Shown here piece by piece: positions 6,114 to 61,211 of a stretch of DNA of 64,000 bases; the first letter of the stretch is position 1; each line of letters begins with the position of its first letter. The position numbers were made by a program, and so were the translations under genes. This stretch comes from Rhodococcoides kyotonense (GTDB lineage: Bacteria; Actinomycetota; Actinomycetes; Mycobacteriales; Mycobacteriaceae), in NCBI RefSeq assembly GCF_900188125.1, contig NZ_FZOW01000006.1, positions 62,001-126,000 of the forward strand, written 5' to 3'. The notes below the pieces were generated by a model that ran no database searches, was not told the origin of the DNA, and was given only the letters and a program-made list of their open reading frames with translations.

Positions 6114-6159
6114 CATGTGCATGGAAATACGTAGCCCTCTATGTATTTCCATGCACATG
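6114..6159. repeat. 46-base HVHENT palindrome, copy 1
   Basis: The 21-base arms 6114-6134 and 6139-6159 flank a 4-base centre (ccct). They pair with one mismatch (CGTAG against CATAG). The copy lies between convergent genes, 12 bases after the stop of the FAD dehydrogenase. On the minus strand the arm 6139-6159 reads HVHGNT-stop in the frame of the LLM oxidoreductase and is its actual C-terminus. Related copies are at 40135, 41257, 50554, 55473 and 61166. Confidence 0.93.
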
Positions 6160-7158
6160 GGGTATTACCTTCTCCCCGTAGGCCTCCAGCGTCTCGGACT
6201 TGTTGTCGTGCTGCAGGTAGACCGCGAACTGATCGACGCCGAGCTTCCGAAGATCCTTCAGCTTCGCCACGTGCTCGGCGGGGCTGCCGAGGAGACAGAA
6301 CCGATCGATCACCGAATCCGGGACGAACTCGGCGTGGGTGTTGCCCGCCTTGCCGTGCTCGCTGTAGTCGTAACCGGTGCGCGCGTCTATGTAGTCGGTC
6401 AACGCGTCGGGCACGCCGCCACCGTGGTGTCCGTAGCGGGCAACGATGTCGGCGACGTGGTTGCCGACCATGCCGCCGAACCACCGGACCTGATCGCGTG
6501 CGTGGGCCAACGCCTCCTCACTGCCGTCGGTGACGTACGCGGGTGCCGCGACACAGAACTTGATCGACGACGGGTCCCGCCCGGCCGCGTCGGCAGCAGC
6601 GCGCACCCGGCCGATCATCCACGACGCGATGTCGGGGTCGGCGAGCTGCAGAATGTAACCGTCGGCGACCTCGCCCGTCAGGTCAAGCGCTTTGGGCCCG
6701 TAGGCCGCGACCCAGACGTCGAGAGTCGACCCGTGAGCCCACGGGAAGTGGACGCTGGTGTCACCGAGGTTCACGGTTCGCCCGTTGGCCAGCTCTCTGA
6801 TGACGTGGATCGACTCACGAAGCGTCGCAAGAGTCGTCGGCTTCTCACCGAGTGTCCTGACGGCCGAATCACCCCGGCCGATACCGCAGATCGTCCGGTT
6901 GCCGTACATCTCGTTGAGTGTCGCGAACGTGGACGCCGTGACCGTCCAGTCTCGCGTTGCGGGATTGGTGACCATCGGCCCGACCATCACTCGACGCGTC
7001 TCCGCGAGAATCCGGCTGTGAATGACGTACGGCTCCTGCCACAGCAGGTGCGAGTCGAACGTCCACACGTGCGTGAATCCGTGTGTCTCTGCACGACGAG
7101 CGAGATCGACGACGCGCGACGACGGTGGCGTGCACTGAAGGACCACTCCGATATCCAT
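6139..7158 (-). CDS. LLM-class (F420-dependent-type) flavin oxidoreductase
   Basis: A 339-residue luciferase-like monooxygenase family TIM barrel: MDIGVVLQCTPPSSRVVDLA, FTHVWTFDSHLLW, GNRTICGIGRGDSAVRTLG and the C-terminal LLGSPAEHVAKLKDLRKLGVDQF. In actinobacteria this subfamily mostly uses coenzyme F420 and is often encoded beside dihydropyrimidinase. Here it is last in an operon with ureidopropionase and dihydropyrimidinase, starting three bases after the hydantoinase stop, so it probably acts on a pyrimidine or hydantoin-like compound. The last six residues (HVHGNT) and the TAG stop are encoded by one arm of the palindrome at 6114-6159, so the native C-terminus was probably different before the element arrived. 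Confidence 0.85.
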   Translation of the reverse strand: MDIGVVLQCTPPSSRVVDLARRAETHGFTHVWTFDSHLLWQEPYVIHSRILAETRRVMVGPMVTNPATRDWTVTASTFATLNEMYGNRTICGIGRGDSAVRTLGEKPTTLATLRESIHVIRELANGRTVNLGDTSVHFPWAHGSTLDVWVAAYGPKALDLTGEVADGYILQLADPDIASWMIGRVRAAADAAGRDPSSIKFCVAAPAYVTDGSEEALAHARDQVRWFGGMVGNHVADIVARYGHHGGGVPDALTDYIDARTGYDYSEHGKAGNTHAEFVPDSVIDRFCLLGSPAEHVAKLKDLRKLGVDQFAVYLQHDNKSETLEAYGEKVIPHVHGNT

Positions 7159-7161
7159 GTC

Positions 7162-8580
7162 TCACAACAGATTCTGCGCTAGGGAGCGCTTGACGAACCG
7201 GCCGTGGCCTGCGCTGCCACGATATTCACCGTCGTCGACGATCACCCTGCCTCGGGAGATGACGGTGTCCACGTGTCCGTCGATCTCGAATCCCTCGTAC
7301 GCGGAATAGTCCATGTTCATGTGATGGGTCTTCCCGAGTCCGATGCTGGTGTGCCCGTTCGGGTCGTAGATCACGAGATCGGCGTCGGCCCCGGGTGAGA
7401 CGATGCCCTTCTTCGGGTACATGCCGAACATGCGCGCGGGCGTCGTGCAGCACACCTCGACCCACTTCTCGAGGCTGATCTTGCCGCTGACGACACCCTG
7501 ATACATCAGGTCCATGCGATGCTCGACGGACCCGATTCCGTTGGGAATCTTGGAGAAGTCGCCGATGCCGAGTTCCTTCTGGTCCTTCATGCAGAACGGA
7601 CAGTGATCGGTGCTGACGGTCGAGACGTCACCGGTGCGCAGATAGCGCCACAGTTCGTCCTGATGCCCCTCGGCGCGGGCACGCAGCGGCGTCGAGCACA
7701 CCCACTTCGCGCCGTCGAAACCCGGCGCGCCCAACTGTTCTTCGAGTGAGAGGTAAAGGTACTGCGGACATGTCTCACCGAACACGTTCTGCCCGTTGCC
7801 TCGTGCGCGTGCGATCTGCTCCAGCGCCTGCTTGGCCGACACGTGGACGACGTACAGCGGCGCGCCCGTGACGTTCGCGAGCATGATCGCGCGGTGCGTG
7901 GCTTCTTCTTCGAGTTGCCACGGTCTGCTCGTGCCGTGGAAGTAGGGCGCCGTGTCCCCGCGAGCGATCGACTGCTCGATCAGAACATCGATCGCAATTC
8001 CGTTCTCCGCGTGCATCATCAGAAGCGCGCCGGTGTCGGCGGCCGTCTGCATCGCGCGTAGGATCTTCCCGTCGTCGGAATAGAAGACGCCCGGGTAGGC
8101 CATGAACAGCTTGAAGCTCGTCACACCCTCCGCGACGAGCTCGCTCATGGCTTTCAAGGAATCGCTGTCGACGTCACCGATGATCTGGTGGAATCCGTAA
8201 TCGATGGCGCAGGACCCCGCGGCCTTCTCGTGCCATTGCGCGAGCGTGTCCTGAACCCGTTGTCCCGGAGTCTGAATCGCGAAGTCGACGATGGTCGTCG
8301 TGCCACCCCATGCCGCCGCGCGTGTCCCCGTTTCGAACGTGTCGGATGCGAACGTTCCGCCGAACGGCATCTCCATGTGGGTGTGGCCGTCGACTCCGCC
8401 GGGCAGAACATATTTGCCCGACGCGTCGACGACGGCGTCCGCGGACTCCGTCAAGTCCGCCGCGAGCGCTGTCGAACCCGGTTGCAGCACAGCGACGATG
8501 GACTCGCCGTCGATCAGGACGTCGAGCAGTTGCGAACCGGTCGGCGACACCACCGTGCCACCGCGGACGAAGGTGATCAC
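7162..8580 (-). CDS. hydA: Dihydropyrimidinase / D-hydantoinase
   Basis: A 472-residue amidohydrolase-superfamily enzyme starting at GTG 8580 (VITFVRGGTVVSPTG). The metal-binding motif GGVDGHTHMEMPFGG is near residue 60. TSFKLFMAYPG includes the lysine that is normally carboxylated to bridge two zinc ions. YVVHVSAKQAL and VSTDHCPF supply further ligands. It hydrolyses cyclic amides such as dihydrouracil, dihydrothymine or hydantoins to N-carbamoyl amino acids, which the upstream amidohydrolase would then cleave. The GTGA overlap at 8577-8580 couples it to that gene. The frame is open upstream to 8934, but that region overlaps a better-supported coding frame. Confidence 0.93.
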   Translation of the reverse strand: MITFVRGGTVVSPTGSQLLDVLIDGESIVAVLQPGSTALAADLTESADAVVDASGKYVLPGGVDGHTHMEMPFGGTFASDTFETGTRAAAWGGTTTIVDFAIQTPGQRVQDTLAQWHEKAAGSCAIDYGFHQIIGDVDSDSLKAMSELVAEGVTSFKLFMAYPGVFYSDDGKILRAMQTAADTGALLMMHAENGIAIDVLIEQSIARGDTAPYFHGTSRPWQLEEEATHRAIMLANVTGAPLYVVHVSAKQALEQIARARGNGQNVFGETCPQYLYLSLEEQLGAPGFDGAKWVCSTPLRARAEGHQDELWRYLRTGDVSTVSTDHCPFCMKDQKELGIGDFSKIPNGIGSVEHRMDLMYQGVVSGKISLEKWVEVCCTTPARMFGMYPKKGIVSPGADADLVIYDPNGHTSIGLGKTHHMNMDYSAYEGFEIDGHVDTVISRGRVIVDDGEYRGSAGHGRFVKRSLAQNLL

Positions 8581-9416: not shown

Positions 9417-9489
9417 ATGCGTCACTCCATCCTCAGCTGGCTGGCCTCCTCAACATAGGCACTCGGCGAGACAAACGTCGGTGCAATCG

Positions 9490-9499
9490 TGTTACAACA
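9490..9499. promoter_or_regulatory. Possible operator upstream of the hydantoinase operon
   Basis: TGTTACAACA is a small inverted repeat (TGTT-N2-AACA) about 75 bases upstream of the first gene of the pyrimidine/hydantoin operon. A TATGTT on the minus strand nearer the gene could be the -10. Short palindromes occur by chance, so the assignment is weak. Confidence 0.2.
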
Positions 9500-9529
9500 T
9501 GGCTCGATCGGTTTCGGACGGGTAACACC

Positions 9530-11041: not shown

Positions 11042-11089
11042 GGTGTCAACGTAACCCGAAGCACCGACACCTAACCCCGCGTTCTTCGA

Positions 11090-12649: not shown

Positions 12650-12713
12650 GACACCTCCCCCTTCGGACCGACGTTCGCCAACGTACCAACTCCGGCCGAC
12701 ATGACGATCTGTT

Positions 12714-12719: not shown

Positions 12720-12725
12720 GTGACG

Positions 12726-14905: not shown

Positions 14906-14911
14906 GACGCT

Positions 14912-30313: not shown

Positions 30314-30364
30314 GAGCGAGGGCCTCATTCGGTCACTCTGAGTGACCGAATGTCACATTCGCTC
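30314..30364. repeat. GAGCGAATGT palindrome, family 2, copy A
   Basis: ATTCGGTCACT and AGTGACCGAAT form a perfect 11-base stem around CTG, extended outward by GAGCGA/TCGCTC after a mismatched segment; arms 30314-30337 and 30341-30364. The right arm is nearly identical to that of the element at 51792-51846. It lies upstream of trhO and downstream of phoD. Confidence 0.75.
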
Positions 30365-35033: not shown

Positions 35034-35079
35034 CCCGTGAGTGCATAGTTGGCCTCTGGACCAACCATCCACACACGGG
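35034..35079. repeat. 46-base imperfect hairpin between convergent genes
   Basis: CCCGTGAGTGCATAGTTGG (35034-35052) and its partner at 35061-35079 match at 16 of 19 positions around an eight-base loop. Total length is 46 bases, as for the HVHENT family, but the arm sequence is different. It lies five bases after the regulator stop and 14 before the iron-binding protein stop, so a bidirectional terminator role is possible. Confidence 0.6.
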
Positions 35080-40134: not shown

Positions 40135-40180
40135 CATGTGCACGGAACTACATAGCGGGCTATGTAGTTCCGTGCACATG
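40135..40180. repeat. 46-base HVHENT palindrome, copy 2
   Basis: Perfect 21-base arms (40135-40155 and 40160-40180) around cggg. Compared with the other copies both arms have matched changes (GGAACTACATAG with CTATGTAGTTCC), so pairing is kept although the sequence differs. It lies between divergent genes, 18 bases upstream of the DinB-like start. Confidence 0.95.
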
Positions 40181-41244: not shown

Positions 41245-41256
41245 GGGCCTTCGGCC

Positions 41257-41334
41257 CATGTGCACGGAAATACATAGCACCCTCTGGTCGCTCCGCAGGC
41301 TACGCTCCTGCCGCTATGTATTTTCGTGCACATG
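41257..41334. repeat. HVHENT palindrome, copy 3, with enlarged centre
   Basis: Arms 41257-41277 and 41314-41334 pair with one mismatch, but the centre is 36 bases instead of four and itself contains GCAGG/CCTGC. The arm 41314-41334 encodes HVHENT-stop of the TenA-like gene on the minus strand. It lies between convergent genes. Confidence 0.92.
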
Positions 41335-47428: not shown

Positions 47429-47429
47429 G

Positions 47430-48272: not shown

Positions 48273-48308
48273 GAAACGACTCCTTGGACTGAACTTCAGA
48301 ACATTGGA

Positions 48309-48322
48309 TGTAATCGATTGCC
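48309..48322. promoter_or_regulatory. LacI-type operator, proximal to btpA
   Basis: TGTAATCGATTGCC contains the symmetrical AATCGATT with the central CG dinucleotide typical of LacI/GalR operators (TGNAANCGNTTNCA). It lies 37 bases upstream of the BtpA gene start. Confidence 0.7.
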
Positions 48323-48384
48323 TTGCGTATATGCACCGTAAGCGATCGTCACCCAGTTGTGTCAAGGTTTTCTCGAGTCGTTTA

Positions 48385-48398
48385 TGTAAACGATTACC
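48385..48398. promoter_or_regulatory. LacI-type operator, proximal to the regulator gene
   Basis: TGTAAACGATTACC matches TGNAANCGNTTNCA closely. The centre is 76 bases from that of the first operator, a spacing that would allow looping between two bound dimers. The site is 67 bases upstream of the lacI-type gene, so autoregulation is likely. Confidence 0.75.
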
Positions 48399-48464
48399 TC
48401 TACTGTGTTACATGCGGGGCAGAAGACCCCGCGGTTCGCTAACGTCGCACGCGAAAGGAGGCCC

Positions 48465-49490: not shown

Positions 49491-50530
49491 GCATCGACGG
49501 CTGCGTCGATCTCGGCGAGCGACACACTCTCGTTCGCGGCGTGCATCAGCGCTGGGGTGCCAGGACCCCACACGACGATCGGTGCGGTCGGCGCTGCCGC
49601 CGCCAGAATCGACGCGTCCGTGAAGTACGTGACGGGGCCGTCCGCGAGGGTTGTCTGCAGTGACGTCACCCAGTCGTCGTCGGAGGGCGTGCGTACCCCG
49701 GGCAGATCGATCCGGGCCTCGACGCGATCCACTTCCGGTTGACTCGTCCACCAATCCAACAGGTTTCGGCCGTCGCCGACGGTGCGATGATCGACGACCA
49801 CGTGTGCCGCGTCGGGCACGATGTTCGGGGCCGACCCGCCGTCGATCGTGCCGACGTTGAACGTCTCCGCGCCCAGGAACGGATCTTCTCCGAGTGGCAG
49901 TTCGGCGCGCGCACGGGCAAGAACGTCGACGAGCTTCATGATCGCGCTCTCGCCCTTCTGCGGCGTACTGCCATGTGCCGCAACGCCGGTCGTCGTGACG
50001 TCCAACCACAGCGCACCGCGGTGGCCGAGGTGGATGCTGTTGCCCGTCGCCTCGGGAACGATGACGGCACCGATCTTGTTTTCTGCCACTGCATGCCTCG
50101 CCGCCTGCGCGCCCAGTGAGCCGATCTCCTCGTCGCTCGTCAGCAACAGTGCGACCGGTACGCCGCGCTCGGCCGCATCGATGACCGCTGCCGTCGCCGC
50201 GACCACGCCTGCCTTCATGTCCGACGTGCCCCGCCCCTGCAGCACGCCGTCCTCGATGGACGCGGCGAACGGGTCGAACTCCCAGTGCCCGAGGTCGCCC
50301 GGCGGCACAGTGTCGACGTGGCATGCGAAGACGAGTCGCTTCGCCGACGGCGGCGCCTCGTTGGTCAGCAGCAGCCAGGGGTGAGCGCTGTCGGGTTGAC
50401 CCTCGACCGTGACCTGCACGCGAGACGCGATCAGCGAGACGATCGTGTCCATCGAAAGACGCTGTGGGGCCGGGTCACCCGACACCGTACGTTGAGCGAC
50501 GAGTTCACGGAGCAGGCCGGTGGAATCCAT
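49451..50530 (-). CDS. M20-family metallopeptidase (ArgE/DapE type)
   Basis: A 359-residue zinc peptidase. RLVFACHVDTVPPGD carries the first His/Asp, GRGTSDMKAGVVAA the bridging Asp, LLTSDEEIGSLGA the catalytic Glu pair. VAAHGSTPQKGESAI is the dimerisation-domain motif. Members deacylate amino acids or cleave dipeptides; substrate unknown. ATG 50530 (MDSTGLL) is taken as the start. The frame continues upstream through the palindrome at 50554-50599 to an ATG at 50596 only because the usual stop codon is mutated in that copy. Confidence 0.86.
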   Translation of the reverse strand: MDSTGLLRELVAQRTVSGDPAPQRLSMDTIVSLIASRVQVTVEGQPDSAHPWLLLTNEAPPSAKRLVFACHVDTVPPGDLGHWEFDPFAASIEDGVLQGRGTSDMKAGVVAATAAVIDAAERGVPVALLLTSDEEIGSLGAQAARHAVAENKIGAVIVPEATGNSIHLGHRGALWLDVTTTGVAAHGSTPQKGESAIMKLVDVLARARAELPLGEDPFLGAETFNVGTIDGGSAPNIVPDAAHVVVDHRTVGDGRNLLDWWTSQPEVDRVEARIDLPGVRTPSDDDWVTSLQTTLADGPVTYFTDASILAAAAPTAPIVVWGPGTPALMHAANESVSLAEIDAAVDAYTAVTRAWPTVD

Positions 50531-50553
50531 GACTCCAGTATGCGGCTTCGCCG

Positions 50554-50599
50554 CATGTGCACGAAAATACATAGTGGGGTATGTATTTTCGTGCACGTG
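50554..50599. repeat. 46-base HVHENT palindrome, copy 4
   Basis: Arms 50554-50574 and 50579-50599 around tggg, with two mismatches. The C-to-G change at 50579 converts the minus-strand TAG into TAC and leaves the frame open. The copy lies between two codirectional genes, three bases after the phosphoribosyltransferase stop and 24 before the peptidase start. Confidence 0.92.
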
Positions 50600-50602
50600 C
50601 GT

Positions 50603-51082
50603 TCATGCCTTCGAGATGGTCGGCAGCGTGGACCACGGGAAATTTATCCAGCGATCGGTCTCGCGCCAGGAGAAATCCGGGGCAACGATGGACTGCGGCT
50701 TGGTATAGATGACGGCCGACTTCACGTCGTCCGTGTGCTTCTTCAACAGCTCGACGACGAGCGCGAGGGTGCGTCCCGAATCCGCGACGTCGTCGACGAC
50801 CAGCAGTCGCTTGCCGACGACCGAATCGGTGTCGAGGAGCGGTTCGAGCACGATCGGGTTCGGCAGGGTCTCCTCGATGTCGGAGTAGAACTCGACGTTG
50901 AGAGTGCCCGCAGCCTTGACTCCCATCGCGTAGGCGATCGCCCCTGCAGGAATGAGGCCGCCGCGTGCGATCGCGATGACGATGTCGGGGACGAAACCGC
51001 TGTCGACGATCTTCGTCGTCAGCTCGCGCGAGGCGGCGCCGAACGTGTCCCAGGTGAGCACTTCGCGAGCAGGTTCGGTCAT
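50603..51082 (-). CDS. Purine-type phosphoribosyltransferase
   Basis: A 159-residue type I phosphoribosyltransferase. The PRPP-binding motif is KRLLVVDDVADSGRTLALVV; VPDIVIAIARGGLIPAGAIAYAMG precedes it, as in xanthine/guanine or hypoxanthine enzymes. It would salvage a purine base with PRPP. ATG 51082 (MTEPARE) gives the usual length; the longer frame to 51175 overlaps the divergent methyltransferase promoter. The stop is three bases from the palindrome. Confidence 0.88.
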   Translation of the reverse strand: MTEPAREVLTWDTFGAASRELTTKIVDSGFVPDIVIAIARGGLIPAGAIAYAMGVKAAGTLNVEFYSDIEETLPNPIVLEPLLDTDSVVGKRLLVVDDVADSGRTLALVVELLKKHTDDVKSAVIYTKPQSIVAPDFSWRETDRWINFPWSTLPTISKA

Positions 51083-51167
51083 GGGGCGATTATGCGCCTG
51101 TAGCGTCGTGTTTGCTGAATCGGCAAACGATGTTGCGCATCGACGACAGCGCTGGCAGTCTCGTGTC

Positions 51168-51785
51168 ATGCACACACACGACGAGCAGCCCGTCTTCGAT
51201 CAGCCGTTCTGGGACAACCTGTACACCGAACAGGCGCAGCGCTGGAGCGGCAACGCCAACCCCGTCCTCGTCACCGAGGCATCCAAACTGACCCCGGGCA
51301 CCGCGCTCGACATCGGAAGCGGTGAGGGCGGCGACGCACGGTGGCTCGCCGACCACGGCTGGACCACCACCGGCGCCGACATCTCGGAGGTCGCCATCGA
51401 TCGGGCCCGCGCGGAGCAGGGCGACCGGAACATCGAATGGCTGCACCGCGACCTGCTCACGTGGGAGCCGGAGACGCAGTACGACCTGGTCACCGCTCAC
51501 TTCTTCCAGCTGCCTCCGCACCAGATCGGGCCGGCGTTCCAGCGATTCGGCAGCGCCGTCGCGCCCGGTGGCCACCTCCTGATCGTCGGACACAGCCCCC
51601 ACGACCACCTCGCATCGCAGCACCAGCACGCGCAGATGCTGTTCGGCGTCGAGGCGATCACGTCACTGTTCGACGACGCGCACTGGACGACCGTCGTCGC
51701 CGAGGACCGCCCGCGTCCCGGCATCGACCCCGACGGCACCCCTGCCGAGCGAAAGGACACGGTGGTTCTGCTGCGGCGAGCCTGA
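51168..51785 (+). CDS. Class I SAM-dependent methyltransferase
   Basis: A 205-residue methyltransferase. LTPGTALDIGSGEGGDARWLADHGWTTTGADISEVAIDRA is the SAM-binding motif; YDLVTAHFFQLPP and VAPGGHLLIVGHSP are the later strands. It resembles small tellurite-resistance-like or thiopurine-like methyltransferases in actinobacteria, but the substrate is unknown. ATG 51168 lacks an obvious ribosome binding site. The stop is six bases before the second family 2 palindrome. Confidence 0.85.
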   Translation: MHTHDEQPVFDQPFWDNLYTEQAQRWSGNANPVLVTEASKLTPGTALDIGSGEGGDARWLADHGWTTTGADISEVAIDRARAEQGDRNIEWLHRDLLTWEPETQYDLVTAHFFQLPPHQIGPAFQRFGSAVAPGGHLLIVGHSPHDHLASQHQHAQMLFGVEAITSLFDDAHWTTVVAEDRPRPGIDPDGTPAERKDTVVLLRRA

Positions 51786-51791
51786 GTGTGC

Positions 51792-51846
51792 GTGAGCGAA
51801 TGTGGCCTTCGGTCACTTGAAGTGACCGAATGTGACATTCGCTCAC
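51792..51846. repeat. GAGCGAATGT palindrome, family 2, copy B
   Basis: Arms 51792-51817 and 51821-51846 around TGA match at 23 of 26 positions: GTGAGCGAATGT then mismatches, then TTCGGTCACT. The right arm is nearly the same as in copy A at 30314-30364. It begins six bases after the methyltransferase stop, so it may terminate transcription. Confidence 0.85.
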
Positions 51847-52070
51847 AAACCAGCGCAGGTCTGCTGGTCGCAGCTCGATTCGTCGGAAGTCGGTCGTCGG
51901 TCTGACAGCGCTGCGGGGGCGATAGACTGGCCGTACGCTCCGGGGGTCCTCGGTACGCCCACCCCCTGGAAGGCTTCGACATCACACCACCGTCCTCACC
52001 CCACGACATCTATCTCGTACCGCCCGAGAACGAGTCCGAGAACTCCGTCTCCGGTGGATCCGCGCGATCC

Positions 52071-53573
52071 GTGGCACGGCTGACCGACCGCGACGACGTC
52101 ATCCCGTTCGACGGCCGGTTCGCGCTTGCGATCACGTCGACGACGCCCCACCAGGCGATGGTCGAGGACCTGCTCTTCATCCGGAACGTCCTCGACGACG
52201 CCGACATCGCGTACCTCCTCGTCCGCGGCAACGACGAACGGCCCGTCATCGCCGTGGACAGCACCGTGCGGGACGCTCTGCGCGAAGCGCTGGTCGCGGC
52301 GTGCCGAAGCGAGCCGTTCTACTGCAAGACCGTCGACGTCAAACGCGGGAAAGCAGTCCTCGTCGCCGACGGCATGCCCATCGACGCAGCCGATGCTCGC
52401 ATCTTCCGCCTGTATCGACCGCGCGCCGAACCCGTCAGCGGACTGAACTACGGCGCATCGACGGCGGTCCAGATCGAACTCTGGACATTCTCCCCGACCG
52501 AAGTCGTTCTGCCCGTCGAGAATTCGCTGACGCGTCGTACCATCGAGCGAAGCGAGGCAGTCCGCGGAACCGTCGAGCGATTCGGCAAGACGTGGCCGAC
52601 CATCGAGAACATGTTCGCCGCACACGCGTCGGACATCGATTTCGACATCGACATCGTCTTCTCCTGGGTCGACGGTTCGTCCGCGGAATTCCAGGCACAA
52701 CGGGCCCGCCGGATGAAGAACTACGTCGTCGGCGAGGGCGACGACTCACCTGCGCGCTTCCGGCAGATCGACGAGCTCAAGTACGCGCTTCGATCGGTGC
52801 ACATGTACGCGCCGTGGATCCGACGCATCTTCGTCGCAACGGATTCGGATCGACCCGAATGGCTCGCCGACGACCCGCGCGTGACGTTCGTGCCGAGCGA
52901 GACGTTCTTCGTCGACACATCCGTTCTGCCGACGCACAATTCGCAGGCGGTGGAGTGCCAGCTGCACCACATTCCTGGCCTGTCCGAGCACTTCCTGTAC
53001 TCGAACGACGACATGTTCTTCGGCCGTCCCGTCGGTCCACAGATGTTCTTCTCCCCCGGTGGAATCAGCATGTTCATCGAGGCGACGACGCGAATTGGGT
53101 TGGGCTACAACGACGCCGACCGCAGCGGCTTCGAGAACGCGGCACGCGTCAACCGTCGACTCCTGCAGGATCGATTCGGACGCATGACCACTCGGCACCT
53201 CGAGCACGCGGCAACACCGCTGCGCAAGAGCGTCATGCAGGAAATGGAGAACGAATTTCCCGACGAATTCGCCTCCACCGCAGCCAGTGTGTTCCGTGCA
53301 AGCACCAACATCTCGGTCACGAACTCGCTGTACCACTACTACGCACTGATGAGCGGCAAAGCCGTCGTGCAGCGTGACGCGCGGGTGAAGTACATCGACA
53401 CCACCTCGCACGCCGGCCTGCACGCGATGGAAGGCCTCCTGCCCAAACGCGCCATGGATTTCTTCTGCCTCAACGACGGAAGCTTCCCCGAAGTGGACCT
53501 CGACGTCCGCACCCGACGCGTCACCGAGTTCCTCGAGCGCTACTACCCGATCGTCGCGCCCTGGGAGAGCTAG
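52071..53573 (+). CDS. Stealth-family sugar-phosphate transferase
   Basis: A 500-residue protein from GTG 52071. It has the conserved regions of Stealth proteins: [12 protein letters not shown] (CR1), [30 protein letters not shown] region (CR2, about residues 225-255), [30 protein letters not shown] (CR3) and the C-terminal segment near [18 protein letters not shown] (CR4). The family transfers hexose-1-phosphate units to build capsular or exopolysaccharide. The frame is open upstream to 51906 and reads as plausible coding sequence, but it has no ATG, GTG or TTG, so the N-terminus is uncertain. No other polysaccharide gene is near. Confidence 0.85.
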
Positions 53574-54475
53574 AGCGAGACCGTCGAATGCCTTGTGCTG
53601 TCGGCGATTCGGACGCCGTTCGCTGCGAGGCGGCGCGCGACCTCGTCGGCAGGCACGTACTCACCCACCGTGTCGTACGAGCCGATCGGCACGACGGAAT
53701 GAACGACGGTGTCGTCGTACACCTGCACCAGATTGAAGGCTTGCGCGCCGTCGCGGCCGCGAATGGCTCCCGGCTCGACACCCAAGTCCTGGGTGTAGCA
53801 GGTCGCCGACGCCACCGACACCGGGATTCCGGCGAACGTCGCCGACGTCGAATAGTGAAGATGCCCTGCCAGGATCGAGCGCACATCGGTTCCACGCAGA
53901 ACGTCCGCAAGGTTCTTCTGATCCAGTAACTCGACGAGAACAGCGAGATCCAGCACCGCCGGAACCGGCGGGTGATGCATCGCGAGAATCGTGCCGAACT
54001 CGGCAGGCTCGGCGAGAACATCTGCGAGCCAGTGTAATTGGTCGTCGGATATCTCGCCGTGGTGATGGCCGGGGACCGTCGAATCGAGCGTGACGACGCG
54101 AAGCCCGTCGATGTCGTGCACTTGATCGATCGACCCCGTCGAAGGAATCTCGTCGAGCAACCGGGTGCGGAAGGTCGCCCGGTCGTCGTGATTGCCCATC
54201 GCCCAGACGATCTGGGCGCCCAGCGCTTCCGCGACTGGTTCGACCAGGGACCTCAGTGTGTCGTATGCACGAGATTCGCCGCGGTCGGTCAGGTCGCCGG
54301 TGAACACCAGCGCGTCGGGACGAACCTCCGATGCCTCGATGTTCGCCAGCACACGGCTCAACCGGGCTTCGCTGTCGACGGCACCGTAGAGGTCACCGTC
54401 GGCGATGAGATGCGTGTCGGTGATGTGCAGCAAACAGTGATTCGGCCGCGGATACTCCGCTGTCCGAGCCTTCAT
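53570..54475 (-). CDS. cpdA: Rv0805-type 3',5'-cyclic nucleotide phosphodiesterase
   Basis: A 301-residue class III phosphodiesterase. The two-metal motifs are [37 protein letters not shown] and [10 protein letters not shown]. The match to M. tuberculosis Rv0805 runs along the whole length, including the rare segment [14 protein letters not shown] and [12 protein letters not shown]. Such enzymes cleave cAMP and other cyclic nucleotides; membrane association through the C-terminus was described for Rv0805. It ends in a 4-base convergent overlap with the Stealth gene. Confidence 0.92.
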
Positions 54476-54631
54476 CGGTCTCTCGCTTCCGATTCGACAT
54501 CAGTGGTTCCTACGAGTTCACAGTAACCACCCTTCCTGAAACTAACCTTCGGAATACGGGACGAGAACACTGCGGAAACACGAAGCCGGTGCCTGAAAAG
54601 CACTCGGCATCCCCGGACACCCCGGATGATC

Positions 54632-54637
54632 TAGATT
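54632..54637 (+). promoter_or_regulatory. -10 hexamer for the secreted hydrolase
   Basis: TAGATT is 30 bases upstream of ATG 54668, which has GAGAGGAAG just before it, so this gene would have a normal short leader. Confidence 0.45.
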
Positions 54638-54667
54638 GAGGTGCACTCCATCCGAGAGGAAGTGCAC

Positions 54668-55462
54668 ATGTTGCTCACTCGATCGAAGATCGCTGCTGTC
54701 ACCGCAGCCGTAGCCGCCAGTCTGACGTTCGGCTCGGGCGTCGCCGCTGCCCAGGATCTGCCGACCGTCGTGCTCGTGCACGGCGCCTTCGCGGACACGT
54801 CCAGTTGGGACGGTGTCGCGTCCGACCTGCGGGCACGCGGCTACGACGTCGTCGTTCCCGACAACCCACTACGTGGCCCCGGCTACGACTCCGCCGCCGT
54901 CGAGAGCGTCGTCGAGGACATCGACGGTCCGGTCGTGCTCGTCGGCCACTCCTACGGCGGCACCGTCATCACCAACGTCCATGCCGACAACGTCGAATCG
55001 CTCGTCTACGTGGCGGCCTTCGTGCCCGCCGCGGGTGAGCCCGCCGCGCTGGCACTCGACCCGTTCCGGTTCGGGCTGACGTCACTGGTACCGCCGGTGC
55101 TCGGACTCGAGATCGTCGACGACTCCACCAACATCATCGGCAAGAACGTCGATTCGTACATCGACCCCGCGCTGTTCCGGCAGTACTTCGCGCCCGACGT
55201 CAGCGACGAGCAGGCATCGAAGATGATCGCGAGCCAGAAGTCCATCGCCGCGACCGCCCTCGTCGAACCGAGCGAGCCGCCGTCGTGGGCGGACACGCCC
55301 AGCTACGCCCTGATCCCGCAGCAGGACCAGATCATCCCGCCTGCATCGGAGAAGTTCATGGCCGAACGCGCGGGCGCGAAGATCACCGAGGTACCCGGGT
55401 CCCACGCAGTGCTCGTGTCGAACCCGGGTGCCGTCGTGGATCTGGTGGTGCAGGCGTCCTAG
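54668..55462 (+). CDS. Secreted alpha/beta hydrolase
   Basis: A 264-residue protein with a Sec signal peptide (LLTRSKIAAVTAAVAASLTF, cleavage near VAAAQD). The mature domain is an alpha/beta hydrolase: VVLVHGAFADTSSWDGV holds the oxyanion region, VVLVGHSYGGTVI the nucleophile Ser, and VPGSHAVLVSNPG the catalytic His. It resembles salicylate-esterase-like and haloperoxidase-like hydrolases; substrate unknown. ATG 54668 is preferred to GTG 54641 because of the ribosome binding site and the signal peptide. The stop is 10 bases before the palindrome at 55473. Confidence 0.85.
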   Translation: MLLTRSKIAAVTAAVAASLTFGSGVAAAQDLPTVVLVHGAFADTSSWDGVASDLRARGYDVVVPDNPLRGPGYDSAAVESVVEDIDGPVVLVGHSYGGTVITNVHADNVESLVYVAAFVPAAGEPAALALDPFRFGLTSLVPPVLGLEIVDDSTNIIGKNVDSYIDPALFRQYFAPDVSDEQASKMIASQKSIAATALVEPSEPPSWADTPSYALIPQQDQIIPPASEKFMAERAGAKITEVPGSHAVLVSNPGAVVDLVVQAS

Positions 55463-55472
55463 GCGCTCCGCG

Positions 55473-55518
55473 CATGTGTGCGGAAATACATAGCCCGCTA
55501 TGTATTTTCGTGCACGGG
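55473..55518. repeat. 46-base HVHENT palindrome, copy 5
   Basis: Arms 55473-55493 and 55498-55518 around cccg, with mismatches near the outer end (CATGTGTGCGG against CCCGTGCACGA). On the minus strand the right arm reads PVHENT-stop and is the C-terminus of the acyl-CoA dehydrogenase at 55498-56613. It lies between convergent genes. Confidence 0.92.
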
Positions 55519-56613
55519 CGCTGCCAGGCGCCTCAGATGATCATCCGCACCACCGAGCGTGTGCTCGATCGCCGTCAGACGCGAAACATAATGTCCGACG
55601 GGGTATTCGGCGGTCACGCCGATACCGCCGTGCAGCTGGATCGCCTCCTGCCCGAGCTTGCGCGACGACCGTGAAATCTGCAGCTTCGCCCGCGACGCGA
55701 CGACAGGATCCACCACGTCGTCGGCGAGGTTCATCGTCGCGTACAACGACATGCTCCGCGCCAACTCCAACAGCACGTACATGTCGGCCGCCCGGAACGT
55801 CAGCGCCTGGAACTTCGCGAGCGGAACGCCGAACTGCTTGCGCTGCTTCAGATAATCGGTCGTCAGGCGCAGCGCCTCTTCCATCGCTCCGACTGCCTCG
55901 GCGCACAACGCTGCCTGCGCGCGCACCTCCGACGCTTCGATCGCCGACGTCGCATCGCCTCCGTCGCCGAGTGGCTCCGCCGCCACGTCCGCGAACGAGA
56001 TCTGCGCCGCCCGCCCGCCATCGTGGGTGCGATATCCCGTGCGCGTCAAGCCGTTCGCGTCACCGTCGACCAGGAAGAGTCCGACGCCACCGCCAGGCAG
56101 CGTCGCGCTGACGACGAGCGTATCCGCGCTCGCGCCGTGGGGCACTGGATTCTTGACCCCGTTCAACGCCCAGGATCCACCGTCCTCGGTGGCCGTCGTT
56201 CCGACGGTGATGTTCGGCCAGCGGCTTCCGGTTTCGTTGTGCGCGAACGCAAGAAGCGTCGTGCCCTCGGCGACACCGGGCAGGATTCGCCGACGCTGAT
56301 CAGTGCTACCGACGTCGGAGATCAGGCCGCCGGGAACAAGGACGGCGTCGAGAATCGGTTCGGGTGCCAGGCGTCGACCCACCTCGGTCATGACGGCCAT
56401 GATCTCCACCGGACCGGCATCCATACCGCCGTCGTCCTCGGCGAAACTCAGCCCGAGCAGGCCGACCTCGGCGAGCTGCTTCCACACTGCCGTCGACCAG
56501 CCTGGGTCGTCGGCGACGATCTTGTTGCGCTTCTCGGTGTCGTAGGCGCGGGTGAGCACCTCACGAGTGGTGTCCCGGAGAAGTTTCTGTTCTTCGTTCA
56601 GTTCGAAATCCAT
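55498..56613 (-). CDS. Acyl-CoA dehydrogenase, short-type partner (FadE)
   Basis: A 371-residue acyl-CoA dehydrogenase family protein: MDFELNEEQKLLRDTTREVL at the N-terminus, TLLAFAHNETGSRWPNI and NGVKNPVPHGASADTLVVSA in the middle, and LHGGIGVTAEYPVGHYVSRLTAIEHTLGGADDH near the end. It follows a second dehydrogenase gene by ten bases; in actinobacteria such pairs form alpha2-beta2 heterotetramers acting on bulky CoA esters such as steroid side chains. Its last residues (VHENT) and the stop codon come from the palindrome at 55473-55518. Confidence 0.88.
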   Translation of the reverse strand: MDFELNEEQKLLRDTTREVLTRAYDTEKRNKIVADDPGWSTAVWKQLAEVGLLGLSFAEDDGGMDAGPVEIMAVMTEVGRRLAPEPILDAVLVPGGLISDVGSTDQRRRILPGVAEGTTLLAFAHNETGSRWPNITVGTTATEDGGSWALNGVKNPVPHGASADTLVVSATLPGGGVGLFLVDGDANGLTRTGYRTHDGGRAAQISFADVAAEPLGDGGDATSAIEASEVRAQAALCAEAVGAMEEALRLTTDYLKQRKQFGVPLAKFQALTFRAADMYVLLELARSMSLYATMNLADDVVDPVVASRAKLQISRSSRKLGQEAIQLHGGIGVTAEYPVGHYVSRLTAIEHTLGGADDHLRRLAAPVHENT

Positions 56614-56623
56614 GGCTGAAACC

Positions 56624-57799
56624 TCACAATCCGAGAATCGTCGACGCGATGATCTGACGCTGCACTTCGTTGGAGCCGCCGTAGATCGACACCTTGCGGT
56701 AGTTGAGATACGTCGGCACCGACCGTTGTGCCCAACCGGGACTGTCGATGTCGTCACCTGCCTGGTACGGCAACGAGTCCGGTCCGGCGATGTCCATCAG
56801 CAACTCGGTGACCGACTGCTGCAGCTCCGAACCGCGAAGCTTCAGAATCGACGACGCCGGGTTCGGCTTACCGTCCGATGACGACGAAATCAGCCGCAGC
56901 TGAGTCACATCGAGAGCCTGCACTTCGTTGTCGAGCTCCGCGAACCGAGCCGCGAACGCCGGATCGTCCAGGAGTGTGCCGTTGCCCAGCCTGATCGCGG
57001 CCGCGTGCTCCCTCGCCTGCTCGAGCCAGACCTTGGTGTGCCCGAGTCGCGTGATGCCGGTGCGCTCGTTGCCGAGCAGGAACTTCGCGTAACTCCATCC
57101 CGAGTTCTCTTCACCCACAAGGTTTTCCGCAGGTACGCGCACGTCCTCGAAGAACACCTCGTTGACCTCGACGCTGCCGTCGATCAACTTGATCGGGCGC
57201 ATCGTGATGCCGGGAGTCTTCAGATCGATCAGCAGGAACGAGATTCCGGCCTGCTTCTTCGGAGCGTCGGGATTGGTCCGGACGAGCGCGAAGATCCAAT
57301 CCGCGTACTGCCCCAGCGTCGTCCATGTCTTCTGGCCGTTGACGATGTAGTCGTCCCCGTCGCGCCTGGCCGTCGTACGCAGGGACGCGAGGTCCGAGCC
57401 TGCTTCCGGCTCCGAGAATCCCTGACACCACCAGATGTCGAGATTCGCCGTGGGCGGTAGGAATTTCTCCTTCTGCTCCTGCGAACCGAACGTCGCGATG
57501 ACCGGCCCGACCATCGACGCGTTGAACGTCAACGGCTCCGGAACCGATGCCAGCTGCATCTCGTGGAGCCAGATGTGGCGCTGTGTCTCGGTCCACTCCC
57601 GTCCGCCGAACTCGACGGGCCAGTTGGGCACGGCCAATCCATTGGCGTTGAGAAGACGCATCGTCGTGACCATGTCGTCACGCGTCAGTTCGATGCCCAC
57701 CCTGCTCTTCTCGCGGATCTCCGCGGGTATCTCGGTGGTGAAGAACGTCCGCATCTCCTCGCGGAATGCAGCTTCCTCTTCTGTCAGGGCAAGATTCAT
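56624..57799 (-). CDS. Acyl-CoA dehydrogenase (FadE)
   Basis: A 391-residue acyl-CoA dehydrogenase with ATG 57799 after GGAGGG. MNLALTEEEAAFREEMRTFF, WWCQGFSEPEAGSDLASLRTTARRDGDDYIVNGQKTWTT, FLLGNERTGITRLG and YGGSNEVQRQIIASTILGL are the family motifs for FAD and substrate binding. With the second gene ten bases downstream it probably forms a heterotetrameric enzyme. The frame is open much further upstream, but that part is antisense to the phosphatase gene. Confidence 0.92.
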   Translation of the reverse strand: MNLALTEEEAAFREEMRTFFTTEIPAEIREKSRVGIELTRDDMVTTMRLLNANGLAVPNWPVEFGGREWTETQRHIWLHEMQLASVPEPLTFNASMVGPVIATFGSQEQKEKFLPPTANLDIWWCQGFSEPEAGSDLASLRTTARRDGDDYIVNGQKTWTTLGQYADWIFALVRTNPDAPKKQAGISFLLIDLKTPGITMRPIKLIDGSVEVNEVFFEDVRVPAENLVGEENSGWSYAKFLLGNERTGITRLGHTKVWLEQAREHAAAIRLGNGTLLDDPAFAARFAELDNEVQALDVTQLRLISSSSDGKPNPASSILKLRGSELQQSVTELLMDIAGPDSLPYQAGDDIDSPGWAQRSVPTYLNYRKVSIYGGSNEVQRQIIASTILGL

Positions 57800-57843
57800 G
57801 AGATCCCTCCGCTTAACTTCCACATATGTCACCTCGACCGTAC

Positions 57844-57865
57844 TCCCCGGTAACTGGGATACTCT
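57844..57865. promoter_or_regulatory. Promoter and possible operator for the phosphatase gene
   Basis: TACTCT (57860-57865) lies nine bases before ATG 57875 and could direct leaderless transcription. TCCCCGGTAACTGGGA (57844-57859) just upstream is an imperfect inverted repeat, symmetric at 12 of 16 positions, and may bind a regulator. It is in the gap shared with the divergent dehydrogenase pair. Confidence 0.35.
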
Positions 57866-57874
57866 GCGGTTACT

Positions 57875-58441
57875 ATGACTTTTCTGGCGCTGGTTCGGCA
57901 CGGTGAAACCGACTGGAATCTGCACGGGCGCCTGCAGGGCAGCTCCGACATCCCGCTGAATGCGACGGGACAGGCGCAGGCACGTGAGGCCGTCTACGAA
58001 CTGGAAGGCCGTTCGTGGGACCTTCTCGCCAGCTCGCCGCTGTCCCGCGCCGCCGAGACCGCCGACATCATCGGCTCTCACCTCGGCATCGCGCGCACCG
58101 CGACCTATCCCGATCTCGCCGAACGGCACTTCGGCGAGGCCGAGGGATTCACCGACTACGACGCCTATTCCCGCTGGCCGCACGGCATGTATCCCGGCCT
58201 GGAGACACGTCGGGATCTGATGATCCGCGGCGTGCGAGCCGTCGACGAGATCGCGTCGACGCATCCGGATTCCTCCGTCATCGCCGTCGCCCACGGCGGC
58301 GTCATACGCGCAATCTTCGACGCGATCCGCGGGGTCGCGTCGCCGCGCATTCTCAATTGCGGCGTCTCGACGTTGACGCACGACGGAACCGCGTGGACCG
58401 TGGAGACGATCAACAGCGTTCCCGCACGAAGGACGTGGTGA
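57875..58441 (+). CDS. Histidine phosphatase family protein
   Basis: A 188-residue phosphoglycerate-mutase-like phosphatase. FLALVRHGETDWN contains the catalytic RHG with His9; SSPLSRAAETADII and VIAVAHGGVIRAIFDA carry the other conserved Arg and His. Members dephosphorylate small phosphates or mycothiol/vitamin intermediates; the substrate is unknown. It probably begins the operon that continues with RidA and the amino-acid transporter. Confidence 0.9.
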   Translation: MTFLALVRHGETDWNLHGRLQGSSDIPLNATGQAQAREAVYELEGRSWDLLASSPLSRAAETADIIGSHLGIARTATYPDLAERHFGEAEGFTDYDAYSRWPHGMYPGLETRRDLMIRGVRAVDEIASTHPDSSVIAVAHGGVIRAIFDAIRGVASPRILNCGVSTLTHDGTAWTVETINSVPARRTW

Positions 58442-58442
58442 G

Positions 58443-58925
58443 ATGAACATCGAGCGGAGAATCTCCGAACTCGGATTCGTACTGCCCGATCAGGCGCAGG
58501 CGCCGCCCGGATTCGAGTTCGCGTTCGAGTGGGCTCGTGTGCGAGGCAACCGCGTGTACGTGTCCGGCCATTCGCCACTCCACGCCGACGGCACACTCGC
58601 CGGGCCGTTCGGGGCCGTCCCGTCGAAAGTCACTCTCGACGCAGCCACCGACGCAGCCCGAGACTCCGCGCTCGCCGCGCTCGCGAGTGTCCGACGGGCC
58701 ATCGGCGATCTCGATCGAATCAGCGCATGGCTCACCGTGTCCGGGATGGTCAACGCCGACCACGGATTCACGCAGACGACGACGGCGATCAACGGCTTCT
58801 CCGACGTCGTCGTGCAGATCTTCGGACCCGAGATCGGCGCACATGCTCGCACCGCCGTCGGAGTGGCAGCACTCCCGATGAACAACGCCGTGGTTGTATC
58901 GGCAGAGATCGAAATCGACGGCTAG
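58443..58925 (+). CDS. RidA family protein
   Basis: A 160-residue RidA/YjgF-like protein starting one base after the phosphatase stop. VRGNRVYVSGHSPLHADGT, DLDRISAWLTVSGMVNADHGFTQ and AHARTAVGVAALPMNNAVVVSAEIEI follow the family fold of a trimer with ligand sites between subunits. RidA hydrolyses reactive enamines and imines made by PLP enzymes or amino-acid oxidases. Position before an amino-acid transporter supports a role in amino-acid breakdown. The variant active site (no RTC motif seen) suggests a subfamily with another substrate. Confidence 0.85.
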   Translation: MNIERRISELGFVLPDQAQAPPGFEFAFEWARVRGNRVYVSGHSPLHADGTLAGPFGAVPSKVTLDAATDAARDSALAALASVRRAIGDLDRISAWLTVSGMVNADHGFTQTTTAINGFSDVVVQIFGPEIGAHARTAVGVAALPMNNAVVVSAEIEIDG

Positions 58926-58937
58926 GAAGGCACTCTC

Positions 58938-60425
58938 GTGCACCGGAAAGCGTTCGCCCTGTTGGCCGCTGTTGTCGCGCTTCTGGCCGTGGCGGGGTGT
59001 GGGTCGTCGTCGGGCCCTCTTCTCGACCAGGTGAAAGAGCGCGGCGTCCTCGTCGTCGGCACCGAGGGGACCTACAGTCCGTTCAGCTATCAGGGCTCCG
59101 ACGGGCAGCTGACCGGTTACGACATCGACGTCGTCGATGCTGTCGCCGAGGAACTGGGTGTGCGCGTCGAATATGTGCAGACGCCGTTCGATTCGATCTT
59201 CGCCGGCCTCGAATCGCAACGCTTCGACCTGATCGCGAACCAGGTCACGATCAACCCGGAACGCCAGGGCGCCTACGACCTGTCCAAGCCGTACACGGTG
59301 TCCGAGGGTGAAATTCTCACCGCGGCGAACAACACGTCGATCACGTCCGTCGACGACCTTGCCGGAAAGACGACAGCACAATCGTCGACGAGCAACTGGG
59401 CGCAGGTCGCCGCCGATGCAGGCGCGAACGTCGAAGCCGTCGAAGGATTCGTGCAAGCCGTCACCCTCGTCAAGGACGGGCGCGTCGACGCCACCGTCAA
59501 CGACAGCTTGGCCGTCGCCGAATATCTGAAGACGACCGGCGACACCGGAGTGAAGGTGGCCGCCGAGACCGGCGACACCAGCTATCAAGCCTTTGCGGCT
59601 CGCAAGGACAGCGGCTTGATGGACGAAATCGACTCTGCCATCGACACGTTGCAGGCCGACGGCACACTCGCACAGATCTCGGAGAAGTACTTCGGATCCG
59701 ACACCGCGGCGCCCACCGCCGATACACAGGCGCCGACGTCGGACGCATCGTCGTCGGAATCCCAATCAAAGCTGGATCTGATTCTCGACAACCTGTGGCC
59801 GATGCTGAAAGCCACTGTCACGATGACCATTCCGTTGACGGCCATCAGCTTCGTCATCGGCCTCGTCATCGCACTCGGCGTCGCGCTGGCGCGGATCTCG
59901 TCGAAGAAGGCGTTGTCGTCGGCTGCGCGCTTCTACGTCTCGATCATCCGCGGCACTCCCCTACTACTGCAGCTGTTCATCGTGTTCTACGCGCTGCCCG
60001 AACTCGGCGTCGTGATCGATCCGTTCCCTGCTGCCGTCGTCGCGTTCAGTCTCAACGTCGGTGGCTATGCGGCAGAGGTCATTCGAGCCGCGATTCTCAG
60101 TGTGCCCAAGGGGCAGTGGGAAGCAGCCGAGACCATCGGCATGGGATATCGGACGTCGTTGCAGCGCATCATTCTTCCGCAGGCGCTGCGCACCGCCGTT
60201 CCGCCTCTGTCGAACACGCTCATCTCACTCGTGAAGGACACGTCGCTGGCGTCGACGATTCTGGTGACGGAACTGTTGCGCGTCGCACAGCTCGCGGCCG
60301 CACCGACGTTCGACTTCTTCGCGTTGTACAGCGTCGCGGCGATCTACTACTGGGTGATCTGCATGATTCTCTCGTTCTTCCAAGGCAAACTCGAAGTCCG
60401 ACTCGACAGGTACGTGGCGAAATGA
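58938..60425 (+). CDS. Fused amino-acid ABC binding protein and permease
   Basis: A 495-residue fusion. Residues 1 to about 255 are a lipoprotein-type (lipobox VAGC) type 3 binding protein: [34 protein letters not shown] and [14 protein letters not shown]. An Ala/Thr/Ser linker (about 255-280) joins it to a permease domain with several membrane segments and the motifs [16 protein letters not shown] and [22 protein letters not shown], the EAA loop that contacts the ATPase. The motifs suit cystine, glutamine or other polar amino acids. GTG 58938 has AGGAAGG upstream. It is coupled to the ATPase gene by a 4-base overlap. Confidence 0.92.
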
Positions 60426-61162
60426 CAGATTTGTTGGAGGTCCGTTCCCTGAAGAAGTCGTTCGGGACACTCGACGTTCTGAAGGACGTCTCGTTCTCCG
60501 TGCCACCGGGAACCGTCACCGTCATCATCGGGCCGTCGGGGTCCGGAAAGACAACTGTGCTGCGGGCGCTGAACGCGCTCGATCCCGCCGACTCTGGCAC
60601 GATCCGTATCGGGGATGTGTCCGTCGACTTCTCGGGCTCGACGACTCAGTTGCGGGCCTTTCGCGCCCAGAGCGGCATGGTATTTCAGCAGCACAATCTC
60701 TTTCCGCACAAGACCGTGCTCGAGAACGTCATCGAGGGTCCGGTGATCGTCCAGAAGCGGCCGAAAGACGAGGCCGTTGCCGATGCTCGCACACTGCTGG
60801 AGCAAGTCGGTCTTGCCGACAAGGCCGACCAGTACCCGTTCCAACTGTCCGGCGGTCAGCAGCAACGCGTCGGGATCGCGCGCGCATTGGCGCTCCGGCC
60901 GAAGCTGATGCTGTTCGACGAGCCCACGTCAGCACTGGACCCCGAACTGGTCGGCGAAGTCCTGTCGGTGATCAAGAGCCTTGCGGCGCAGGGGTGGACG
61001 ATGGTCGTCGTGACACACGAGATCCGCTTCGCCGAACAGGTCGCCGACGAGGTTCTGTTCATCGAGGGTGGCGTCGTCGTCGAGCGGGGTGCGCCGGCGG
61101 ATGTGTTGAAGAATCCATCCGAGGTCAGGACTCGCCAGTTCTTGCAGCGGATATTGGCCTGA
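60422..61162 (+). CDS. Polar amino-acid ABC transporter ATPase
   Basis: A 246-residue ATPase of the GlnQ type. Walker [17 protein letters not shown]-loop [18 protein letters not shown], signature [15 protein letters not shown] and Walker [17 protein letters not shown] are intact. ATG 60422 overlaps the permease stop (ATGA). It powers uptake by the fused binding protein/permease. The stop lies three bases before the palindrome at 61166. Confidence 0.95.
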
Positions 61163-61165
61163 CGG

Positions 61166-61211
61166 CATGTGCACGAAAATACATAGCGGGCTATGTATTT
61201 TCGTGCACATG
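61166..61211. repeat. 46-base HVHENT palindrome, copy 6
   Basis: Perfect 21-base arms 61166-61186 and 61191-61211 around cggg; the best example of the family. It fills almost the whole gap between two convergent genes, three bases from each stop codon (TGA ending 61162, TAA 61215-61217), which makes a bidirectional terminator plausible. Confidence 0.96.

What the first reader, a model, noticed from the sequence alone, without database searches (positions are those of the whole stretch)
6114..61211. Family of 46-base palindromes encoding H-V-H-E-N-T-stop, at least six copies in 55 kb
Copies at 6114, 40135, 41257, 50554, 55473 and 61166 share 21-base arms (starting CATGTGCAC, ending ATACATAG) and, except at 41257, a 4-base centre. 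They sit in very short gaps: four between convergent genes, one between codirectional genes, one between divergent genes. The A+T-rich core stands out against GC-rich surroundings. Because the arm is exactly seven codons ending in TAG, it can close a reading frame entering from either side. I know of no named actinobacterial element with this sequence. It could be a non-autonomous mobile palindrome, a bidirectional terminator, or a protein-binding site.
Basis: partly seen in the sequence, partly recalled or inferred. Interest (0 to 1): 0.9.

Follow-up and report, generated by a model that had tools for sequence, protein, structure and literature searches.

The report
Gene-end palindrome repeats in Rhodococcoides
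A 46-base DNA palindrome occurs about a hundred times in this Rhodococcoides genome, nearly always right at the end of genes, and related species carry it at some of the same places but spelled in their own version, which suggests copied elements that serve as two-way gene-end signals.

Summary
All six palindromes are at the stated places; the one at 41257 is 78 nt, with a 36-nt centre. The genome (Rhodococcoides, the R. fascians group) holds about 100 copies. The family was found in 29 of 37 genomes of the genus and in no other genus searched. Of 98 catalogued copies, 91 lie within 20 nt of a stop codon and 60 lie between convergent genes. At 31 gene ends the stop codon is the arm's last codon (mostly HVH-E/G-NT-TAG). 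Related species carry the palindrome at some of the same gene ends with a lineage-specific core (ATACATAG, CTTCGTAG, ATACGTCS, ATGTAGGC): 30 orthologous pairs at 11 sites, none shared between classes. At two window sites studied in depth, some relatives carry a different palindrome family, a terminator-like GC hairpin, or nothing. A wide-centre subtype shares an asymmetric centre at unrelated loci, so elements seem to be copied as units. The own genome has no RAYT match, and the three copies tested lack a T-tract. Best reading: a genus-specific, REP/YPAL-like, non-autonomous palindromic repeat at gene 3' ends, probably acting as a bidirectional transcript-end signal. Termination and the copying machinery are inferred, not shown.

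The parts
6114..6159 (.). 46-nt palindrome, copy 1; right arm carries the TAG stop (6139-6141) of the minus-strand gene
6102..6113 (+). mini-hairpin GCAGCTTCGCTG between the TAG stop of the plus gene (6099-6101) and the palindrome
40135..40180 (.). 46-nt palindrome, copy 2; perfect 21-bp arms with a paired A-T to C-G change in the core; between divergent genes
41257..41334 (.). 78-nt wide-centre copy; same arms, 36-nt centre; right arm carries the TAG stop (41314-41316) of the minus gene
41286..41312 (+). GGTCGCTCCGCAGGCTACGCTCCTGCC unit in the centre; related units occur at unrelated loci, also alone and in tandem
41245..41256 (+). mini-hairpin GGGCCTTCGGCC after the TAG stop of the plus gene
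   Evidence: read from sequence
50542..50553 (+). mini-hairpin GCGGCTTCGCCG next to copy 4, on the side where no gene ends
50554..50599 (.). 46-nt palindrome, copy 4; codirectional minus genes, 3 nt from the stop of the right-hand gene
55463..55472 (+). mini-hairpin GCGCTCCGCG after the TAG stop of the plus gene
55473..55518 (.). 46-nt palindrome, copy 5; right arm carries the TAG stop (55498-55500) of the minus gene
61166..61211 (.). 46-nt palindrome, copy 6; perfect 21-bp arms, 3 nt from the stop codons of both convergent genes
35034..35079 (.). member of a second 46-nt family (CCCGTG...CACGGG) in another convergent gap

Best explanation
This is a genus-specific family of short, non-autonomous palindromic repeats whose niche is the 3' end of genes. 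Each unit is a 46-nt palindrome, often flanked on one or both sides by a 10-13 nt GC mini-hairpin that begins just after, or contains, the gene's stop codon. Transcribed from either side it would give a stable 21-bp hairpin right behind the stop codon, and most likely it works there as a bidirectional transcript-end signal (termination and/or a block to 3' exonucleases). Copies spread and are replaced within a lineage, so each lineage has its own dialect of the arms, also at gene ends shared with other lineages. Shown: copy number, genus restriction in the genomes searched, 3'-end position, paired changes in mid-stem, lineage-specific arms at orthologous sites, different palindromes at one orthologous site, and a shared asymmetric centre at unrelated loci. 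Inferred: termination, mobility by an enzyme acting in trans, and the identity of that enzyme.
For: Own genome: 88 copies by tip pattern; 98 main-type copies catalogued, 91 within 20 nt of a stop codon. 60 of 98 are convergent against 152 of 764 background gene pairs, Fisher P 1.5e-16. None of the own copies was called inside a gene. In other species 93 of 97 classifiable copies lie within 20 nt of a stop codon. RNA folds of -34 to -58 kcal/mol, z -3.9 to -10.7, for the seven main-family stretches folded. Paired changes at positions 7-11, for example position 11 paired 0.859 against 0.526 expected. Between genomes of different core class, 30 of 30 orthologous pairs, at 11 distinct sites, keep each genome's own core (first seen in 39, 58). 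At site 55473 five genomes of the fascians group carry a GC hairpin instead, some with a T-rich tail. At site 61166 a CAGTGG-family palindrome stands in its place in G021 and G023, a clade nested among genomes that keep the main type. Wide-centre copies at unrelated loci share the centre. Arm positions 7-9 are homogenised in some genomes, for example AAC in 35 of 38 arms of G032.
Against: No T-tract: the consensus terminator scan of 44001-64000 called none of the three palindromes there. G-U mismatches are not favoured over A-C in gene sense in codirectional copies: own 15 against 17, other species 13 against 17; at positions 7-11 in own copies 9 against 4, too few to decide. No convincing solo arm or gene-bearing copy in the own DNA I held, and no consistent target duplication. 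Seven of 98 copies are not within 20 nt of a called stop codon; six of these are called divergent, the window's 40135 among them. One other-species copy was called inside a gene. Positions 7-9 are mixed in KRD197 (CGC 17, AGT 15, CGT 5, AGC 3 arms).
Confidence: 0.55

Rival explanations
1. The palindrome is a double-stranded protein-binding site at gene ends (a nucleoid or termination factor), and the dialects reflect co-evolution with that protein.
For: Tips CAYGTG and the core are conserved in sequence while position 3 varies almost freely in each arm (pairing 0.685 observed, 0.639 expected), as for sequence recognition. No clear strand bias of mismatches.
Against: Mid-stem positions 7-11 vary in sequence but stay paired, and positions 7-9 are homogenised in some genomes; binding alone does not require either. 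Orthologous sites can hold other palindrome families or a GC hairpin.
Confidence: 0.2
2. It is a REP element mobilised by a RAYT (Y1) transposase.
For: Size, intergenic 3' position and copy number resemble REPs.
Against: No Y1_Tnp (PF01797) match in the own genome, and 1 match among the 23 same-genus genomes of that search. GTAG within 18 nt in 33 of 152 gene-side and 2 of 44 other flanks.
Confidence: 0.03
3. It is a TA-target MITE (IS630/Tc1-like, recalled) that re-creates TAG stop codons when it inserts into stop codons.
For: Stops 10-16 nt away are TAG in 45 of 55 against 239 of 724 gene calls. Empty G027 site TTAG compared with filled TAG...CTA at 61166.
Against: TAG at 10-15 nt is rare on sides where no gene ends (5 of 44 flanks against 48 of 152), so it follows gene ends. 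No gene-bearing copy seen in the DNA held.
Confidence: 0.08
4. They are ordinary intrinsic terminators that look alike only because all terminators are hairpins.
For: Of 24 convergent gaps of 20-200 nt in a less targeted own sample, 14 carry a strong palindrome (score 13 or more, mean of single-base shuffles about 5), several of unrelated sequence.
Against: Far more sequence conservation than a hairpin needs: several arm positions are invariant in 184 of 184 arms. Sequence is shared across unrelated loci but differs between lineages.
Confidence: 0.08
5. They are uptake-type signal sequences accumulated by biased transformation, like DUS dialects in Neisseriaceae.
For: Dialects between related species and inverted pairs associated with terminators are described for DUS (PMC3630211, passages).
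Against: Only about 100 copies, 46 nt long, no convincing single arms in the DNA held; competence was not examined.
Confidence: 0.04

Closest known systems
YPAL / RU-2 of Yersinia (review PMC2229807, passages read)
   Same: Palindromic repeat; target spans or lies next to dyad symmetry; co-translated with upstream genes; might influence mRNA stability; empty and filled sites compared.
   Different: YPAL is about 168 nt with target duplications of 3-26 bp; this one is 46 nt, fully palindromic, with lineage-specific cores and no consistent duplication found.
REP elements, GTAG/CGTC families (PMC3733652, abstract and passages read)
   Same: Short palindromes, mostly between convergent or codirectional genes.
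   Different: No invariant GTAG or CGTC tag, no RAYT match in the own genome, longer than 20-40 nt, no G-T bias. A word search of that paper for six actinobacterial terms found none.
DNA uptake sequence dialects of Neisseriaceae (PMC3630211, passages read)
   Same: Species dialects of a repeated motif, often as inverted pairs at terminators.
   Different: Copy number, length and always-paired arms; no link to transformation known here.
RUP and Correia/NEMIS MITEs (PMC2229807, passages read)
   Same: Small intergenic repeats with terminal inverted repeats; some have stop codons in all frames.
   Different: Those have TA at their termini; here TA/TAG is not consistent on the sides where no gene ends.

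Membership tests
REP/RAYT | RAYT (Y1) transposase gene in the genome | tested here: not met
   PF01797: 0 in own genome; 1 of 23 same-genus genomes (own included) searched
REP/RAYT | GTAG or CGTC tag at one stem base | tested here: not met
   within 18 nt: GTAG 33 of 152 gene-side and 2 of 44 other flanks; CGTC 19 of 152 and 2 of 44
MITE | target-site duplication | tested here: inconclusive
   no consistent TA; one empty site (G009) with a single CACGTG between the two mini-hairpins; one TTAG empty site (G027)
MITE | autonomous element with the same ends | tested here: inconclusive
   none seen in the window and fetched own stretches (869,588 bases,095); rows flagged as solo arms were 15-16 of 21 matches or belonged to other subtypes; the rest of the genome was not scanned for solo arms
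MITE | copied to unrelated loci as a unit | tested here: met
   wide-centre copies with a shared asymmetric centre; blastn of the window copy with 500-nt flanks against L171, L193 and L222 matched the element plus at most about 20 nt, not the flanks; L223 gave no hit; L190 not tested this way
Intrinsic terminator | GC stem followed by a T-tract | tested here: not met
   none of the 3 palindromes in 44001-64000 was called; other copies not scanned
Intrinsic terminator | transcript ends at the site | not testable with these tools
   needs RNA 3'-end mapping
YPAL | about 168-nt repeat of Yersinia and Erwinia | tested here: not met
   46 nt; found only in this genus in the genomes searched; no direct sequence comparison with YPAL was made
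Rfam RNA family | gathering-score match | tested here: not met
   0 matches in the window

The most novel reading that the evidence does not exclude
Each Rhodococcoides lineage writes its gene-end palindromes in its own dialect, and an unknown trans-acting system copies or rewrites about a hundred dispersed palindromes in place, so that gene ends shared since the common ancestor carry matching new arms. Lineages G030 and G003 differ from their sister genomes in this way.
Probability: 0.3. Interest if true: 0.8.

Novelty: new variant of a known kind. Interest (0 to 1): 0.6.

Why it matters
Short palindromic repeats are described mostly with RAYT or IS partners (PMC3733652 and PMC2229807, passages; the emphasis on proteobacteria is recalled). 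Here is an abundant family in an actinobacterial genus with no such partner found, sitting almost exactly on stop codons, supplying stop codons to some genes, and showing lineage-specific change at orthologous sites. It offers a natural test of how bacterial gene ends turn over and of what homogenises dispersed 46-base repeats. It would also help annotate transcript ends in Rhodococcoides.

Tried and rejected
RAYT partner: not found in the own genome. TA target duplication: suggested by the excess of TAG stops and by the 61166 site, then weakened because sides without a gene end rarely have TAG. RNA-strand test by G-U against A-C mismatches: no bias overall. Origin-linked placement: a first test against contig coordinate 1 in G032 gave 32 of 43 copies, P 0.002, but dnaA lies at 0.761 Mb and the recount gives 26 of 43 in the origin half, so this is dropped. 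Placement in G032 is still uneven: 9 of 43 copies fall in 1.35-4.17 Mb. Plasmid and phage collections: no match, one copy tried in each. Loop and positions 7-9 at orthologous cross-class sites are no more alike than shuffled (loop same 2, mean 5.3), while close pairs (flank identity 88% or more, n 42) are (18 against 9.2); this does not separate replacement from saturation. A search for single CAYRTG sites between mini-hairpins gave 22 rows, mostly in genes or part of known copies, with only the G009 site convincing. The classifier labelled one KB10 arm (ATACGTAG) as class B; one search counts it as A. One pair had no class (own against a CCCGTG-type copy of G032) and was left out.
Full report
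Observation. Five are 46-mers; 41257-41334 has the same arms around a 36-nt centre. My gene calls agree on four convergent, one codirectional and one divergent setting. In three copies the arm's TAG is an ORF's stop codon. Gene calls here and below come from a home-made codon-usage finder trained on the window, so orientation and distances carry its errors.

Copy number and spread. The own genome is 6.31 Mb in 50 contigs. A covariance model from 23 copies listed 150 strand matches, which is the scoring cap, so about 75 copies or more. A loose tip pattern found 88, reversed control 0. My catalogue, made from regions chosen around copies plus the window, has 105 palindromes: 98 of the main type (a few with an ATGTATAG-like core) and 7 of a CCCGTG family. 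In the genus 29 of 37 genomes (own included) have matches, and 0 of 24 genomes of other genera of the order. With the tip pattern 2 of 249 genomes match, both in this genus; only three genomes of the genus were in that draw. The model was built on the own dialect, so other dialects are under-counted.

Place. Of 98 main copies, 60 are convergent, 31 codirectional, 6 divergent and 1 at a stretch edge; the background of adjacent pairs is 152 convergent of 764. 91 of 98 have a stop codon within 20 nt. The distances cluster at -21 (31 gene ends: the arm's last codon, 30 TAG and 1 TAA), 0-5 (50) and 10-16 nt (55). In the last class the stop is TAG in 45 of 55 against 239 of 724 gene calls (P 1e-12), mostly followed by a mini-hairpin such as GCGGCTTCGCCG; in part of the 0-5 class a TGA or TAG sits in the mini-hairpin loop. 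In other species 93 of 97 classifiable copies are within 20 nt of a stop, but only 2 gene ends use the arm's last codon (5 edge rows and 1 inside-gene row were left out).

Structure and constraint. The stem is 21 bp. In 92 own copies (chosen by likeness to the consensus) several arm positions never vary in 184 arms. Position 3 varies almost without pairing. Positions 7-11 vary but stay paired above expectation. The small first alignment showed 6 pairs with changes on both sides; three of its rows were turned by me, which favours G-U at one pair. G-U and A-C mismatches in gene sense are balanced in codirectional copies.

Dialects. Cores differ by lineage: ATACATAG (own, KRD197, KB10, G032, nzgw98 with a GCGA variant), CTTCGTAG and near variants (fascians group), ATACGTCS (G030), ATGTAGGC (G003, with one ATGCGCAC copy). 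Of 86 distinct orthologous filled pairs, 55 join genomes of the same class and share it, 30 join genomes of different classes and in all 30 each genome has its own class; one pair without a class was left out. The 30 pairs come from 11 of 32 distinct sites, so they are not 30 independent events. A tree of a neighbouring coding block puts G030 next to G020 and G003 next to G032, so those core changes probably lie on the branches to G030 and G003. Arm positions 7-9 are also homogenised in some genomes: AAC in 35 of 38 G032 arms, CAC in 136 of 190 own arms; KRD197 is mixed.

Turnover. At the orthologue of 61166, G006, G008 and G016 have the fascians dialect, G021 and G023 a 46-nt CAGTGG palindrome, G032 and G005 also CAGTGG-type, G030 and G003 their dialects, G027 nothing; for the other genomes no two-sided match was obtained in the stretches fetched. 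At 55473, G020 and G003 have the element, G032 and G005 CAGTGG-type, G006, G008, G016, G021 and G023 a GC-rich terminator-like hairpin, and G009 only the two mini-hairpins with a single CACGTG between them; G030, G027, G031 and G001, matched through the G020 copy, have other inverted repeats there. In the tree G021+G023 nest among genomes with the main element, so the swap at 61166 is probably theirs. In 584 kb of own DNA not chosen around individual copies, mostly from contigs where none had been listed, there are 12 palindromes of these families, and 14 of 24 convergent gaps of 20-200 nt carry a strong palindrome.

Copying. Wide-centre copies at the window 41257 site, L171, L193, L190 (own) and L222 (G032) share an asymmetric centre with a GGTCGYTCCGCAGGCT-type unit; blastn against L171, L193 and L222 matched the element and not the flanks. 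L223 has a different 31-nt centre. The GGTCG unit also occurs alone and in tandem, so repeated insertion of that unit into the loop is a possible alternative.

Reading. The simplest account is a mobile or copied palindrome family that is tolerated, and probably used, at gene ends as a two-way transcript-end hairpin. Termination is inferred from position, symmetry, hairpin strength and the terminator-like hairpins found in its place; the lack of a T-tract (three copies) argues for a factor-assisted or mRNA-protecting role rather than classical intrinsic termination. The copying enzyme is unknown.

Literature. Searches listed no paper that describes this family, judged by titles and abstract starts; one search returned no paper. 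Passages were read of PMC3733652, PMC1590033, PMC2229807 and PMC3630211.

Noticed in passing
window 35034-35079; L149:18145, L143:9960, L155:2479, L162:9842, L187:542, L191:6882, L266:3809 and 8809: Second 46-nt palindrome family CCCGTGCGTGCATAGTTGG-n8-CCAACTATGCACGCACGGG, mostly in convergent gaps.
   Followed up: partly
L128:4115-4207, L097:7809, L134:1750, L164:11362, L228:9665: About 27-33 nt repeat GGTCGTTCCGCAGGCTCCACTCCTGCC, alone or in tandem in several Rhodococcoides genomes.
   Followed up: partly
window 30326-30352; L197:8517, L142:9518, L156:2733: Another palindrome family with core GGTCACTCTGAGTGACC or close to it.
   Followed up: no
window about 51776-51905: 55-nt inverted repeat GTGAGCGAATGTGGCC...GACATTCGCTCAC behind the plus gene ending at 51785.
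   Followed up: no
G006:C1 about 1-82700 (L048, L053): Matching hits at mirrored positions (3383/79336, 15586/67133) suggest a large inverted duplication or assembly artefact.
   Followed up: no
L113:4102-4137: Tandem duplication of mini-hairpin and tip (TGAGGGGCTTCGCCCACG / TGAGGGGCTTCGCCCATG) beside a copy in R. kyotonense KB10.
   Followed up: no
L211 and L213 (G031, G001): A 37-nt palindrome CAGGTGAGTGGGAATC...GATTCCCACTCACCTG (or close) near the 55473-equivalent gap.
   Followed up: no
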